Assembly: GCF_027797205.1 (NCBI RefSeq) | Contig: NZ_CP115607.1 | Location: 496,001 to 560,000, forward strand | Direction of reading: 5' to 3' | Origin: Campylobacter sp. VBCF_01 NA2 | GTDB taxonomy: Bacteria; Campylobacterota; Campylobacteria; Campylobacterales; Campylobacteraceae | Length of the DNA stretch: 64,000 nt | In this document: in pieces, positions 50,529-56,494 of the stretch | How the letters are laid out: each line of letters starts with the position of its first letter | Numbering within the stretch: position 1 is the stretch's first letter | Translations under genes and position numbers: made by a program | Notes under the pieces: generated by a model | What the model was told of the DNA's origin: nothing | Database searches by the model: none | Seen by the model: the letters and a program-made list of their open reading frames with translations, nothing else

Positions 50529-50576
50529 AATTTAATCAAATTTATAATCATTGAAATTTTGAAATTTGGAGCTTTT

Positions 50577-51551
50577 ATGAGCGATTTAAATTTTATAAAC
50601 GAGATGAAAAACAAGGCTATCGCCAGTGAGAATTTAAGCAAAAACGAAGCGTTAAATTTAGCTAAAACTAGCGATTTGGACGCACTTTTGAGCGCGGCAA
50701 ATGAGATTAGGCAAATTTGCTGTGGCGATGAGTTTAATTTTTGCTCGATTATAAATGCGCGTTCTGGCAAATGCTCGGAAGATTGCAAATATTGCGCTCA
50801 GTCTGCGCATTTTAAAACAGGTTGCGAAACTTACTCGCTTTTGGAGACTACGCCCGTTTTGCAAATGGCAGGGCAAAACGAAAAGGCAAAAGTTCATCGC
50901 TTTTCGCTCGTTGCCAGTGGTCGTGGGATAAGAGAAAATGACAAAGATATGCCAAAAATCGAGCAAATTTATCGTGCGCTAAGAGAGCAGACAAATTTGC
51001 ACCTTTGCGCTTCGTTTGGGATTGCCACAAAAGAAGCCTTGCAAAAGCTTAAAGATAGTGGCGTGAAAACCTATCATCATAATTTAGAGACTTCGCGCAG
51101 ATTTTATCCGCGAATTTGCACCACACACAGCTAAGATGATAGAGTGCAAACTATCAAAAACTGCCACGCTGTCGGGCTTGATGTGTGTAGCGGCGGGATT
51201 TTTGGGCTTGGCGAGAGCGTGGAAGACCGCATAGATATGGCGTTTGAGTTGCGAGAACTTGGCGTAAGCTCTGTGCCGATAAACATTTTAATGCCGATTT
51301 CAGGCACTCCGCTTCAAAACTGCGCGCCGCTTAGCGAAGAAGAAATTTTACGCTCTATTGCTGTGTATAGATTTATTTTACCGCGCGTTTATCTGCGTTT
51401 TGCGGGCGGACGCGTAAAGCTTGGTAAAAGTATAGAAAAAGCGCTAAATTCTGGCGTAAATTCGGCTATTACAGGGGATTTTCTCACCACCACCGGCGAT
51501 AGCATAAAAGGCGATATGAAGCTTGTCGCTTCACTTGGATTTAGGATATAA
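50577..51551 (+). pseudogene. bioB: Biotin synthase interrupted by an in-frame stop
   Basis: Radical-SAM enzyme inserting sulfur into dethiobiotin. The full sequence is recognisable from ATG 50577 (GGAG upstream): CSEDCKYCAQSAH radical-SAM cysteines, then YHHNLETSRRFYPRICTTHS, a TAA at 51132-51134, then in the same frame DDRVQTIKNC, CSGGIFGLGES, and the C-terminus. Family members have an aromatic residue at this point, so TAC or TAT to TAA is a one-base change. Both halves remain undisturbed, so the mutation is recent, the codon is read through, or the base is a sequencing error. As written, only 185 residues are made. Confidence 0.85.
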
Positions 51552-51605: not shown

Positions 51606-52229
51606 ATGTTTAACGGACTAATTAGAGAAATCGCCGAAGTCATTAGTTTTAGCGGAAATTCGCTTCGAATTCGCGCCAAATTTCGCCCTGAGCATATCGG
51701 CGATAGTATCGCCATAAACGGCGCGTGTTTGAGCGTAACGCAAATTTTATCTGACGGCTTTGTCGTGGAGATTTCGAGCGAAACCGCCGCACTCATCGCC
51801 ACGCAAAATTTCAGAGGCAGAGTGCATATCGAACCTGCTATGCGACTTGGAGATCGCATTGACGGGCATTTGGTGCAGGGCCACATCGACGGCGTGGGCG
51901 AAATCACAAAAATCACAAAGCTAAAAAGCGGATATGATTTTTTTATAAATTTGCCAAAAAATTTAATGCCCTTTGTCGCAAACAAAGGCTCGGTCGCAAT
52001 CGACGGCGTTAGCCTAACCATAAACGAAGTCTTGCCTAACGCAATTCGGCTAACCATAATCCCGCAAACTATGAAAGATACGCTATTTGGTGAGTTTCAA
52101 GCAGGGCGAAAGGTAAATGTCGAAACCGATCTGCTCGCAAGATACGCAGCGCGAATTTTGGGCTTTGTGGGCGAGAAAAAAGAGAGTTTGTCGTGGGATC
52201 AGGTGAATTTGATTTCAAGCCTTTATTAA
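51606..52229 (+). CDS. ribE: Riboflavin synthase, alpha subunit
   Basis: Dismutates two 6,7-dimethyl-8-ribityllumazine molecules to riboflavin. N-terminal MFNGLIREIAEV is the classical MFTG(I/L)-type start; two internal lumazine-binding repeats (CLSVTQI...GRVHIEPAMRLGDRIDGHLVQGHIDGVG, then VAIDGVSLTINEV...FQAGRKVNVETDLLARY). 207 residues is the usual length. GGAGAAAAA precedes the ATG. The 3' end overlaps the next gene by 37 bp. Confidence 0.94.
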   Translation: MFNGLIREIAEVISFSGNSLRIRAKFRPEHIGDSIAINGACLSVTQILSDGFVVEISSETAALIATQNFRGRVHIEPAMRLGDRIDGHLVQGHIDGVGEITKITKLKSGYDFFINLPKNLMPFVANKGSVAIDGVSLTINEVLPNAIRLTIIPQTMKDTLFGEFQAGRKVNVETDLLARYAARILGFVGEKKESLSWDQVNLISSLY

Positions 52230-53041
52230 ACGCCTTTAAATTCGGCTTTACCGATAGATTTGGCTTAGCTAACGCAATTTTTAACGATACTGCACCGCGA
52301 AATTTTGACTGCGAAAATTTGGATAAATTTGATAAATTTAACCTTGCTTTTCATGTTGGCGATGAATTTGAAAATGTGCTAAAAAATCGTTTTAAACTAG
52401 CAAATTTACTAAATTTACCAATAAAAAATTTAATTTTTATGAACCAAATTCATAGCGATAAAATTTGCGTTATAGATGAAAATTTTTTGCAAAATTTCCA
52501 CGCTAAATTTGATGAATTTTTTAAATTTGACAAATTTAAAGATGAAAATTTGCAAAGTGAATTTATGAAAATTTTCCCTGAGTGCGACGCAATGATTACA
52601 AATTTGCGTGGCGTGGGACTGTGTGTCATGGTGGCGGATTGTTCGCCTGTTTTGTTGCTCGATGAAAAAAGCGGCGCAGTGGGCGTGGCTCATGCCGGTA
52701 GAGTCGGGGTTACGCAAAAAATCGTAACCAAAACAGCCTTTAAAATGAGTGAAATTTACGGCACGAAAATTTGCGATTTAAGCGTAATCGTGGGGGCAAA
52801 TATAAGGGGCGAGTGCTACGAAGTGGGGAAAATGGACTTGGGAGAATTTAACGCCTTTAAGCGTAGAAATAAATTTGATATGAATTTGGCTTTAAAGGCT
52901 GAATTTGCTGAGCTTGGCATAAAAAAATTCAAATTTAGCAAATTTTGCACTCATTGCGAAAATCATCTTTACTCATACCGCCGAGATGGCGTAACAGGGC
53001 GTTTTTGCGGGTTTGTGGTGAAAAATTTTATAAATATATAG
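52193..53041 (+). CDS. pgeF: Laccase-domain protein, peptidoglycan editing factor PgeF-like
   Basis: 282 residues, YfiH/PgeF (multicopper-polyphenol-oxidase-like) family; E. coli PgeF removes misincorporated residues from muropeptide precursors. Zn-ligand motifs are visible: NQIHSDKI, VMVADCSPVLLL and VAHAGRVGV, although the canonical HAGWRG tryptophan is missing. GTG start at 52193 inside ribE is the only in-frame start before the conserved FGFTDRFG, so I keep it. The lysine and phenylalanine-rich interior reflects AT pressure. The family is clear; activity unproven. Confidence 0.85.
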   Translation: MGSGEFDFKPLLNAFKFGFTDRFGLANAIFNDTAPRNFDCENLDKFDKFNLAFHVGDEFENVLKNRFKLANLLNLPIKNLIFMNQIHSDKICVIDENFLQNFHAKFDEFFKFDKFKDENLQSEFMKIFPECDAMITNLRGVGLCVMVADCSPVLLLDEKSGAVGVAHAGRVGVTQKIVTKTAFKMSEIYGTKICDLSVIVGANIRGECYEVGKMDLGEFNAFKRRNKFDMNLALKAEFAELGIKKFKFSKFCTHCENHLYSYRRDGVTGRFCGFVVKNFINI

Positions 53042-53104
53042 TTGCACAAATGTGTTTAAGAAAAAATATTATAAAATTTGGGATATTTTCATTAAAGGAT
53101 TTAT

Positions 53105-53506
53105 ATGTCAAACAAAACACTAAATTGTCCAATTCGTGGCGAACTGAAAGTTAAAGAAAAAGCCAAAGATGATTTAACTTTTACAGAAGAATATCGTAGA
53201 ATAGAGTGCGTGAAAGAGCTATTAAATTTGGGTTATCCAAAAGAAAGATTTGATTTTGAAAAAATTGTTTGGGATAATTTAGGAAATTCTGGTAGAAATA
53301 ATATACGAGCGGACATTGTTATTTATGATGACGACAAAAAAGAAAAGATTTTTCTAATAGCCGAAATAAAGAGAGATGATGTAAATAAAAAAAATGAAAC
53401 AATAGAAACACAATTAAAGCCACCACTGATAAAAAATAAAGCTACTTATGGAATTTATTATGATGGTGTAGAAAATGTATTTTTAGATGCGGGGGGGGGG
53501 CTATGA
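53105..53506 (+). CDS. Restriction (HsdR_N-like) part of phase-variable R-M gene
   Basis: Reads as the first ~128 codons of one long restriction-modification polypeptide. Contains a PD-(D/E)xK nuclease pattern of the type I HsdR N-terminal kind: ADIVIYDDDKKEKIFLIAEI followed by KRDD, with D, ExK in order. AAAGGATTTAT precedes the ATG. A run of ten G at 53491-53500 puts it out of frame and it stops 6 nt later. With nine (or twelve) G the frame continues into the methylase at ...AGGGYEQEYPF. The DNA is markedly AT-rich compared with flanking genes. Confidence 0.8.
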   Translation: MSNKTLNCPIRGELKVKEKAKDDLTFTEEYRRIECVKELLNLGYPKERFDFEKIVWDNLGNSGRNNIRADIVIYDDDKKEKIFLIAEIKRDDVNKKNETIETQLKPPLIKNKATYGIYYDGVENVFLDAGGGL

Positions 53507-55454
53507 ACAAGAATATCCTTTTGTAAAATTTCCAAAATATAATTGGACTTTCAAAGATGAGCCATTAAAATATTCTGACTTGCAACCAATAAAATCATTT
53601 TATCCATTTCTATATATAATTCATCAATTATTACACAATTTGGGTTCAACAAAAGAAAAATCATATAAAGAATTTTTTAAAATTTTAATATGCAAATATT
53701 ATGATGAAAAAGAGCATTGTAATGATGACGAGCCGTTGAGTTTTCAGGTTGGAAAAGATTTGCAAACTAAAATGCAAGAATTATATGAAAAGGCGAACAA
53801 ATATTATAAATTAGATTTAGATGATGAATTTAACCTGCACAATGAAACTTTGATAAAAATAGTTAAATTATTAGAACAATATACATTGTTGGAATCTCGA
53901 CAAGAAGTATTACAAGCATTGTTTATGAAATATGCAGAAAGCACTTTGAAAACGGAATTATCACAATTTTATACACCTATTGATATTATAGAATTTATTG
54001 TTGGAATGCTGGTTATAGGAAATATGACGACAGTTATAGACCCAGCTGGTGGTAGTGGTGATTTTTTGATAGGTGCTTTAAAAAAGAATAAAAATATTAG
54101 AGAAAATTTATATTATTTTGATTGTTCGCCAGAAGCTTGTAAAGTTGCTAAAATGAATATGATATTAAATGGTGACGGCAAAACAAATATTTATGAAAAA
54201 GATAGTATTGCTGAATTTGATATATATAATGAGCGTTTTGATTTAGTAATAACCAATCCACCGTTTGGAACTCAAACTATTTTCAATGGAAGTGATGATA
54301 TTTTAGAACAATATGATATTTTTAAATATTTCAAAAGTGGCAAAAGCAAAAGTTTTGATAGCAAAGATAATCAAGGAAAAAGGCTTGGTGTATTATTTAT
54401 AGAGAGAAGTCTAAAATTGCTCAAAAACAATGGTATTTTATGTATAATTTTGCCAAATGGATATTTAAATAATCCTAGCGATGTTGCGATTAGAAAATTT
54501 TTACTCAATTATAGGATAGTAGCTTATATTTCTTTGCCAGAAGGCGTTTTTAAGGGTAGTAATACTGGTGTAAAAACTGGAATTTTAGTAGTAAAAAAAG
54601 AAAAAATGGAAAATGATTATAGGATTTTTACTGCCGTAGCCAATGATGTAGGATTTGATTTTCATAAAAAAACATTAGATAGATTATATCAAAGAGATGA
54701 AAATAATGGAACTGAAATTTTAGATACAGATAATAATAAAATTCCATTAAGTGATTTTCCGTTAATTTTACAAAAATTTAAACAATTTATTTTTGATAAT
54801 AATATAAGTGGTTTTGAAAAAGAAAACACTAATATGGATTATGCGTATATAACTAGAAATAATTTTTTAAAAAATTTGATTTTAAGAGCAGAAAGCAATG
54901 AATTTGAATATATATCAACTATAAATAAGATAAAATCACAAGATTACTTTACATTATTAGCAGATGAAATAACAAATAAAAAAGAAGTAAAAAAAATATC
55001 TCATGATGACTATATTTACTTAGATATAGGCAATATTGGATATGGCTCATATAGGTTAGATAATATTTTAAAAGGTTGGCAATTACCAAATAGGGCTGCA
55101 ATGAATTTGCAAAAATATGATATATGTATATCAAAGTTAAAAGGAAGTTTGGAATCGTTTGCTATGATTTTGCATGATAATGCAGAAAATTTTATTTTAA
55201 CAAATGGGTGCTATCGTATTAGAATTGATGATGAAGTTAAAAGGCTTAGTTTTTATGGTTTTTTATTTTCACAAGATTATTTAATACAAATGAAAGCATT
55301 GGCAACTGGTTCAATTATGCTTGATGTAAAAGAAAACGATTTATGCGACATAGTATTTCCGAAATTAAGTGACTATAAATTACATGCTATAAAAAATTAT
55401 ATAAACAGTTCAAGGGAATTTATAAATCTTAATACAAAACTATTTAATTCATAA
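53487..55454 (+). CDS. Methyltransferase-specificity part of single-chain R-M system
   Basis: About 650 residues. N6-adenine methylase: motif I DPAGGSGDFLIG (about residue 192), motif IV TNPPFG (about 254), NGYLNNPSD and KTGILVVKK follow. A C-terminal target-recognition, HsdS-like region (about 470-655) includes DYFTLLADEITNKKEVKKIS and YDICISKLKGSLESF. Joined to the upstream nuclease part it is a nuclease-methylase-specificity protein of roughly 780 residues, as in type IIG or BcgI-like enzymes. The ATG at 53487 lies inside the G tract and lacks a ribosome-binding site, so the OFF state probably makes little methylase. Confidence 0.82.
   Translation: MRGGGYEQEYPFVKFPKYNWTFKDEPLKYSDLQPIKSFYPFLYIIHQLLHNLGSTKEKSYKEFFKILICKYYDEKEHCNDDEPLSFQVGKDLQTKMQELYEKANKYYKLDLDDEFNLHNETLIKIVKLLEQYTLLESRQEVLQALFMKYAESTLKTELSQFYTPIDIIEFIVGMLVIGNMTTVIDPAGGSGDFLIGALKKNKNIRENLYYFDCSPEACKVAKMNMILNGDGKTNIYEKDSIAEFDIYNERFDLVITNPPFGTQTIFNGSDDILEQYDIFKYFKSGKSKSFDSKDNQGKRLGVLFIERSLKLLKNNGILCIILPNGYLNNPSDVAIRKFLLNYRIVAYISLPEGVFKGSNTGVKTGILVVKKEKMENDYRIFTAVANDVGFDFHKKTLDRLYQRDENNGTEILDTDNNKIPLSDFPLILQKFKQFIFDNNISGFEKENTNMDYAYITRNNFLKNLILRAESNEFEYISTINKIKSQDYFTLLADEITNKKEVKKISHDDYIYLDIGNIGYGSYRLDNILKGWQLPNRAAMNLQKYDICISKLKGSLESFAMILHDNAENFILTNGCYRIRIDDEVKRLSFYGFLFSQDYLIQMKALATGSIMLDVKENDLCDIVFPKLSDYKLHAIKNYINSSREFINLNTKLFNS
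53491..53500 (+). repeat. Homopolymeric G10 tract (contingency locus)
   Basis: Ten consecutive G between GATGC and CTATG inside coding sequence. Frame arithmetic: 10 G gives GAT GCG (GGG)3 CTA TGA (stop); 9 G gives ...GGC TAT GAA CAA, which enters the methylase frame; 11 G leads to a stop a few codons later. Campylobacter genomes use such poly-G slippage for phase variation. Confidence 0.95.
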
Positions 55455-55466
55455 TTTTTTATAATC

Positions 55467-55515
55467 AAATTCGAGATTTTTACTATGTATTTTTGTAGCG
55501 AAATCTCGAATTTTT
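55467..55515 (+). terminator. Terminator after the R-M gene
   Basis: A 13-bp perfect stem (AAATTCGAGATTT / AAATCTCGAATTT) with a 21-nt loop and a T5 tail. 12 bp after the R-M stop. Confidence 0.8.
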
Positions 55516-55544
55516 AATTTATCTTAATTTCAGAATAATTTCAG

Positions 55545-55699: not shown

Positions 55700-56494
55700 A
55701 TGGTTACAATGAGAGATTTATTAGAATGTGGCGTTCATTTTGGTCACCAAACACGCCGCTGGAACCCAAAAATGAAGAAATTCATTTTCGGCGAGAGAAA
55801 AGGTATCTATATCATAGATTTGCAAAAAACTATTCGCTACTTCCGCTACACTTACAATGTCGTTCGCGATGCAGCAGCTGAGGGCAAAACAGTGCTATTT
55901 GTCGGCACTAAAAAACAAGCAGGTGCGACTTTGCGTGAATATGCTGAAAAATGCGGAATGCCATTTGTAAATCATCGCTGGTTAGGCGGTATGCTAACAA
56001 ATTTCAGCACTATCAAACAATCAATCCGCAAACTAGAAGTCATCGAAGCTATGGAAGAAGACGGCTCAATCAACCTTCTAACAAAAAAAGAAGCCCTAAT
56101 GCTACGCCGCAAAAAAGAGAAATTAGAGCAATATCTGGGCGGAATTCGCAATATGAAAAGCTTGCCTGATATGATTTTTGTCATCGATGTAGTAAAAGAA
56201 AAAATCGCCGTAGCAGAAGCAAACAGACTAAAAATCCCTGTCGTAGCTCCGCTAGATACAAACTGCGACCCTGATGTTGTAGATTTCCCAATTCCTGGCA
56301 ATGATGACGCTATCCGCTCGGTTCAACTTTTCTGCCAAGAAATGGCTGAGGCTATCAATGAAGGAAAAGCGCTAAGAGACCAAGACGGCGAAGTAAGCGA
56401 AGAAAAAGCAGAAGTAAGCCAAGAAGAAAAAGATGAAATCGTAGAAGAAGCGATGAGCGAAGAAGATTTCGAAACAGCAGAGGACGCAGAATAA
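55700..56494 (+). CDS. rpsB: 30S ribosomal protein S2
   Basis: 264 residues from ATG 55700, directly after CACAAGGAGAAAACTC; the open frame upstream to 55595 is leader, not protein. [25 protein letters not shown]-type start, [11 protein letters not shown], and [19 protein letters not shown] are all standard. The acidic C-terminal extension ([22 protein letters not shown]) is typical of Campylobacterota S2. Followed directly by tsf (TAATG overlap). Confidence 0.97.

What the first reader, a model, noticed from the sequence alone, without database searches (positions are those of the whole stretch)
53105..55454. Phase-variable single-chain nuclease-methylase-specificity gene, OFF as sequenced
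The G10 tract separates a PD-(D/E)xK nuclease domain from the methylase and target-recognition region. One G fewer restores a single ~780-residue protein. Both halves are intact, so this is switching and not decay. AT content marks it as acquired. Switching would alter both restriction and genome methylation.
Basis: partly seen in the sequence, partly recalled or inferred. Interest (0 to 1): 0.6.

Follow-up and report, generated by a model that had tools for sequence, protein, structure and literature searches.

The report
Poly-G-switched one-piece restriction-modification gene
A Campylobacter-type bacterium carries a horizontally acquired phage-defence gene that both cuts and marks DNA, interrupted by a run of ten G's that very probably flips it on and off by slippage; this works like switches already known in Campylobacter and Helicobacter, so it is a well-supported but ordinary new example.

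Summary
G10 at 53491-53500 is the only G/C run of six or more in the window. It splits a 26% GC gene into a 133-aa PD-(D/E)xK (HSDR_N_2) frame and a 655-aa N6-adenine methylase plus TRD frame; 9 or 12 G reads as one 782/783-aa protein. Two relatives, Helicobacter sp. 16-1353 (56%) and Campylobacter sp. UBA1713 (48%), encode the same three-part protein as one intact ORF without a G run. ORF1 has a Shine-Dalgarno site and ORF2 has none. The gene lies alone in an insertion between pgeF and rpsB, a site empty in five congeners and holding other nuclease genes in two sister species. At several other poly-G sites tract length differs between close genomes, and no MutS1 was found, so slippage is plausible. 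Switching at this tract was not seen: no second strain covers it. Closest known: HaeIV-type single-chain Type IIG/IIB enzymes (architecture) and phase-variable cj0031 (G9 on, G10 off). New member of a known kind. A side observation may be more interesting: many poly-G tracts in this clade directly abut a -10 promoter hexamer.

The parts
53037..55501 (.). AT-rich acquired segment holding only this gene
   Evidence: Similarity to sister genomes G002/G012 ends at window about 53026-53036 and resumes at about 55502-55516 (alignments). GC falls from about 40% to 22-28%.
53094..53099 (+). Shine-Dalgarno AAAGGA of ORF1
   Evidence: Sequence; anti-SD duplex -5.4 kcal/mol.
53105..53506 (+). ORF1, 133 aa: PD-(D/E)xK nuclease part, frame ends just after the G tract
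   Evidence: HSDR_N_2 E 2.1e-9, residues 28-128. D70, K89 and Q103 nearly invariant in 14 homologues; E87 (AEIK) present here.
53491..53500 (+). G10 tract, Gly-Gly-Gly region of the open-frame protein, in a loop between predicted strands 125-128 and 136-138
53487..55454 (+). ORF2, 655 aa: helical region, N6-adenine methylase, C-terminal TRD; no Shine-Dalgarno at its ATG
   Evidence: N6_Mtase E 8.3e-32, Eco57I E 3.9e-15; SD scan
53919..54647 (+). N6_Mtase domain, gamma order (DPAGGSGDFL then NPPFG)
   Evidence: Pfam hit residues 145-387 of ORF2; motifs
54933..55385 (+). Single target-recognition domain, HsdS half-subunit type
   Evidence: Profile A1 columns 610-760 match S subunits 3okg_A and 5ybb_D, E 4e-4; MAD5 and specificity-subunit hits E 1e-4 and 1e-3. 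Structure model poor here.
55467..55513 (+). Inverted repeat AAATTCGAGATTT / AAATCTCGAATTT followed by a short T run, possible terminator
   Evidence: Perfect 13-nt arms; not picked by the strict terminator scan.
52193..53041 (+). Left flank: pgeF-like (Cu-oxidase_4) gene
   Evidence: PF02578 E 2.6e-54
55700..56494 (+). Right flank: rpsB
   Evidence: Adjacent to pgeF in five congeners

Best explanation
This is one gene for a single-chain restriction-modification enzyme of the Type IIG/IIB kind: N-terminal PD-(D/E)xK nuclease, gamma-class N6-adenine methylase, one C-terminal TRD. It was acquired as a one-gene cassette between pgeF and rpsB. A poly-G tract in a surface loop at the end of the nuclease domain makes it phase-variable: slippage to 9 (or 12) G gives the full 782-aa enzyme, while 10 G, as sequenced, ends translation after 133 aa, so restriction and methylation are both off. 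Shown: anatomy, frame arithmetic, domain identities, intact one-frame relatives, acquisition, variability of sister tracts. Inferred: that this tract switches, that the ON protein cuts and methylates, and that it acts as a dimer on a symmetric bipartite site (by analogy with HaeIV, one TRD per chain).
For: Frame and tract; chance. Domains. Relatives as one continuous ORF with the same domain order, 56% and 48% identity and no G tract: named. Nearest solved structures by sequence and by fold: BsaXI RM subunit (E 9e-25, E 6e-23), then Type I M subunits and BpuSI. No SD for ORF2. Ten G tracts of 8 or more in the genome, orthologous tracts of different length in near genomes (13/10/7, 13/15, 9/8, 9/10); no MutS1. 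Insertion site. Precedent: cj0031, G9 ON, G10 OFF, some phages plate on OFF but not ON (PMC4889913).
Against: No strain or read data show another tract length at this locus. The same-species genome G103 lacks the whole stretch in its assembly. The TRD is identified only by weak profile hits. Catalysis is untested; the Helicobacter relative has K in place of the catalytic E (AKIK), so the nuclease can be lost in this subfamily.
Confidence: 0.85

Rival explanations
1. Sequencing or consensus error in a long homopolymer: the real majority state is 9 G and the gene is ON. It would still be a poly-G contingency gene.
For: A G10 homopolymer is where long-read consensus fails most; read data are not available here.
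Against: No other frameshift was noticed among the long ORFs of the window; the only broken gene noticed, bioB, has an in-frame TAA, not an indel. Other tracts differ between genomes by more than one base.
Confidence: 0.08
2. Fixed decay: the gene was inactivated once by a frameshift and is degrading.
For: The Helicobacter relative has lost a catalytic residue (K for E); bioB in the same window is broken by a stop.
Against: Over 2.3 kb there is no other stop or frameshift, all methylase motifs and the D-ExK triad are present, and the lesion sits in a 10-G run, a chance-unlikely place.
Confidence: 0.05
3. Partial OFF: in the 10-G form the ATG at 53487, just before the tract, starts the 655-aa methylase-TRD protein by re-initiation, giving methylation without restriction.
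For: The ATG opens the ORF2 frame only when the tract has 10 (or 13) G; ORF1 terminates 17-19 nt downstream of it.
Against: No Shine-Dalgarno (+0.2 kcal/mol); the ATG arises from GAT-GCG codons and need not be selected.
Confidence: 0.05

Closest known systems
HaeIV-type single-chain Type IIG/IIB enzymes, 2x R-gammaM-TRD (PMC3874165)
   Same: Order nuclease, gamma N6-adenine methylase, single C-terminal TRD in one chain
   Different: HaeIV is not described there as poly-G controlled; sequence kinship to HaeIV itself was not tested; cleavage and site unknown here
BsaXI / BcgI Type IIB RM subunits (PMC11997821)
   Same: Best sequence and fold match among solved structures, N-terminal PD-(D/E)xK then methylase
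   Different: BsaXI needs a separate two-TRD S subunit; here one TRD is fused and no S gene adjoins
Cj0031 (CjeFV family) phase-variable Type IIG of Campylobacter jejuni (PMC4889913)
   Same: Poly-G in the reading frame of a fused nuclease-methylase; G9 ON, G10 OFF; many homologues lack the tract
   Different: 1243 aa, Eco57I/TaqI_C type, tract near base 2573 of 3732; here 782 aa, HSDR_N_2 plus HsdM-like, tract between nuclease and methylase
Helicobacter pylori JHP1272 / HP1353-1354 Type IIG with two homopolymeric tracts (PMC3936762)
   Same: Homopolymer switches a single-chain Type IIG on and off
   Different: A second tract changes specificity there; here only one tract

Membership tests
Type IIG/IIC restriction-modification enzymes | Nuclease and methylase in one chain | tested here: met
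   In the 9-G frame and in two natural one-ORF relatives
Type IIG/IIC restriction-modification enzymes | PD-(D/E)xK catalytic residues present | tested here: met
   RADIVI and AEIK present; D70, K89, Q103 nearly invariant in 14 homologues
Type IIG/IIC restriction-modification enzymes | Gamma N6-adenine methylase motifs (DPxxGSG, NPPF) | tested here: met
   DPAGGSGDFL and NPPFG; N6_Mtase E 1e-31
Type IIG/IIC restriction-modification enzymes | TRD in the same chain | tested here: met
   Residues 610-760 match S-subunit structures, E 4e-4; weak but consistent
Type IIG/IIC restriction-modification enzymes | Cleaves at fixed distance and methylates its site | not testable with these tools
   Needs protein
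Type IIB (BcgI/BsaXI) with separate S subunit | Adjacent hsdS-like gene with two TRDs | tested here: not met
   Flanks are pgeF and rpsB
Type I restriction-modification | Separate HsdR with helicase motor | tested here: not met
   No motor domain in the gene and no HsdR-like ORF next to it; rest of the genome not searched for HsdR
Poly-G phase-variable genes of Campylobacter (PhasomeIt definition: 7 or more G/C) | Tract of 7 or more G in a frame that length change closes or opens | tested here: met
   G10; 9 and 12 open the frame; threshold from PMC6321876
Poly-G phase-variable genes of Campylobacter (PhasomeIt definition: 7 or more G/C) | Tract-length variants observed at this locus | not testable with these tools
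CjeFV / cj0031 family | About 1240-aa Eco57I/TaqI_C-type protein | tested here: not met
   782 aa, HSDR_N_2 plus N6_Mtase, no TaqI_C hit

The most novel reading that the evidence does not exclude
A three-state switch: 9 G gives restriction plus methylation, 10 G gives methylation only from the ATG at 53487, 8 or 11 G gives neither. A tract between nuclease and methylase would then uncouple the two activities safely.
Probability: 0.05. Interest if true: 0.5.

Novelty: new member of a known kind. Interest (0 to 1): 0.3.

Why it matters
It adds a compact (782-aa) HSDR_N_2/HsdM/TRD enzyme to the phase-variable R-M repertoire of Campylobacterota and shows poly-G control on a horizontally acquired gene whose relatives lack the tract. 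If it switches, ON clones would differ from OFF clones in phage sensitivity, DNA uptake and methylation pattern. The site between pgeF and rpsB is a small defence-gene hotspot in this species group.

Tried and rejected
Strain comparison: G103 (same species) lacks pgeF, the gene and rpsB in its assembly, so it says nothing about presence or tract length. First structure model, 3 sequences, too poor to use; second, 14 sequences, mean pLDDT 68.5, usable for nuclease and methylase but not for the TRD. ORF2 as an independent gene: rejected for lack of SD and because relatives are fused. Transposon or integrase carriage: no convincing end repeats and no recombinase ORF beside the gene. bioB as a sign of indel errors in the assembly: rejected, it is an in-frame stop (comparison with sister genomes was uninformative because bioB is not at that place there).

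Full report
What is there. The window lies in a complete 1,608,381-bp chromosome; the nearest named relatives of this gene are in Campylobacter and Helicobacter. At 53105-55454 one gene is split by G10 at 53491-53500 into ORF1 (133 aa) and ORF2 (655 aa). Of tract lengths 8-12 only 9 and 12 give a continuous protein, 782 or 783 aa. The run is the only G/C run of six or more in 64 kb and is longer than in any of 2000 shuffles of the gene.

What the protein is. ORF1 carries a PD-(D/E)xK nuclease domain (HSDR_N_2, E 2e-9) and ORF2 an N6-adenine methylase (N6_Mtase, E 8e-32). The C-terminal 170 residues match HsdS-type specificity subunits weakly. The methylase motifs DPAGGSGDFL and NPPFG and the nuclease residues (RADIVI, AEIK, Q103) are intact. 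Read through, the protein is closest among solved structures to the RM subunit of BsaXI, by sequence and by fold of a medium-confidence model (mean pLDDT 68.5), followed by Type I M subunits and BpuSI.

One gene, not two. Searches of 153 genomes of the family and 397 of the phylum found two full-length relatives, named: Helicobacter sp. 16-1353 (765 aa, 56%) and Campylobacter sp. UBA1713 (755 aa, 48%). Both are single uninterrupted ORFs without a G run. Where the query has the Gly-Gly-Gly of the tract they have Asp/Lys/Asn-rich residues; in the model this is a loop between two strands at the end of the nuclease domain, a place that should tolerate one glycine more. ORF1 has a normal Shine-Dalgarno site; ORF2's ATG has none. 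More distant homologues occur both as single chains with a TRD (about 807-835 aa) and as nuclease-methylase proteins, some followed by an S gene.

Acquired. GC is 26% in the gene against 41% in the window. In sister genomes G002 and G012 homology stops at the end of pgeF and resumes about 190 bp before rpsB. In five congeners pgeF and rpsB are adjacent (about 110-175 bp). In G002 and G012 the same gap holds other AT-rich genes: PDDEXK_4 nucleases matching the phage-defence candidate PDC-S26, and in G012 also a large TPR protein. In G005 and G006 it holds an amidohydrolase-like gene and in G008 a longer block with transport genes. The place is therefore an insertion site with changing cargo, defence-like in this gene's nearest sister species. 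No convincing end repeats were found.

Does the tract switch? No second strain covers the locus, so switching is inferred. Support: the genome has ten G tracts of 8 or more. Where such tracts could be matched to near genomes, most sets differ in length: 13, 10 and 7 G at one site, 13 and 15, 9 and 8, 9 and 10; one set is 9 and 9. MutS1 is not found while the same search finds it in 11 of 14 control genomes, so slippage would not be repaired by that route. The precedent is close: in cj0031 of C. jejuni G9 is ON, G10 is OFF, and some phages plate on the OFF variant but not on the ON variant (PMC4889913). R-M genes form nine phase-variable homology groups in Campylobacter (PMC6321876).

How it most likely works. 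In 9-G (or 12-G) cells the enzyme is made, methylates adenine in its motif and cuts unmarked DNA; in 10-G cells, as sequenced, only the 133-aa nuclease fragment is made, without methylase or TRD, so both activities are off. With one TRD per chain it probably acts as a dimer on a symmetric bipartite site, as proposed for HaeIV (PMC3874165); this is an analogy, not tested.

Comparison. Architecture fits single-chain Type IIG/IIB enzymes; the switch fits cj0031. It is not a member of the cj0031/CjeFV family (different size and domains), nor of BcgI/BsaXI with separate S (no S gene).

Side observation. Many long poly-G tracts of this clade lie directly before a TANAAT hexamer, typically 30-60 nt before small membrane or lipoprotein genes with good ribosome-binding sites. 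In G000 five distinct sites match G7 + 0-2 nt + TANAAT and the reversed control matches none; the same pattern holds in G103, G002, G012 and G009. This suggests promoter-level phase variation as an important mode in this group, whereas a published survey of Campylobacter finds mainly coding tracts (20% of groups have intergenic ones; PMC6321876).

Noticed in passing
G000 loci L006, L010, L012, L015, L022 (genome positions about 670222, 983710, 1026391, 1553049, 1586394); also G103, G002, G012, G009: Poly-G tracts (7-15 G) directly 5' of a TATAAT-like -10 hexamer, usually 30-60 nt before small lipoprotein or membrane genes with good SD sites; orthologous tracts differ in length (13/10/7; 13/15; 9/8). 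Looks like a clade-wide set of promoter-level phase-variable genes.
   Followed up: partly
L013 (genome about 1081686, - strand): HTH-WYL transcription regulator with an in-frame G9 tract, open as sequenced; the same-species genome has an orthologue with G9 and a second copy with G10, so it may be a phase-variable regulator.
   Followed up: partly
window 50559-51551: bioB (biotin synthase) is interrupted by an in-frame TAA at 51132-51134 with the rest of the protein intact in the same frame.
   Followed up: partly
L082 1634-6089 and L083 1924-3108: The pgeF-rpsB gap in sister genomes holds PDDEXK_4 genes matching phage-defence candidate PDC-S26 and, in G012, a 990-aa TPR protein.
   Followed up: yes
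L106 about 1777-2529: In congener G008 the same gap holds a long short-unit repeat array, open in three frames (LAC / GVF / RVW repeats), of about 700 bp.
   Followed up: no
L100 2472-4769 (Helicobacter sp. 16-1353): The closest relative has K in place of the catalytic E of the nuclease (AKIK for AEIK), so it may methylate without cutting.
   Followed up: no
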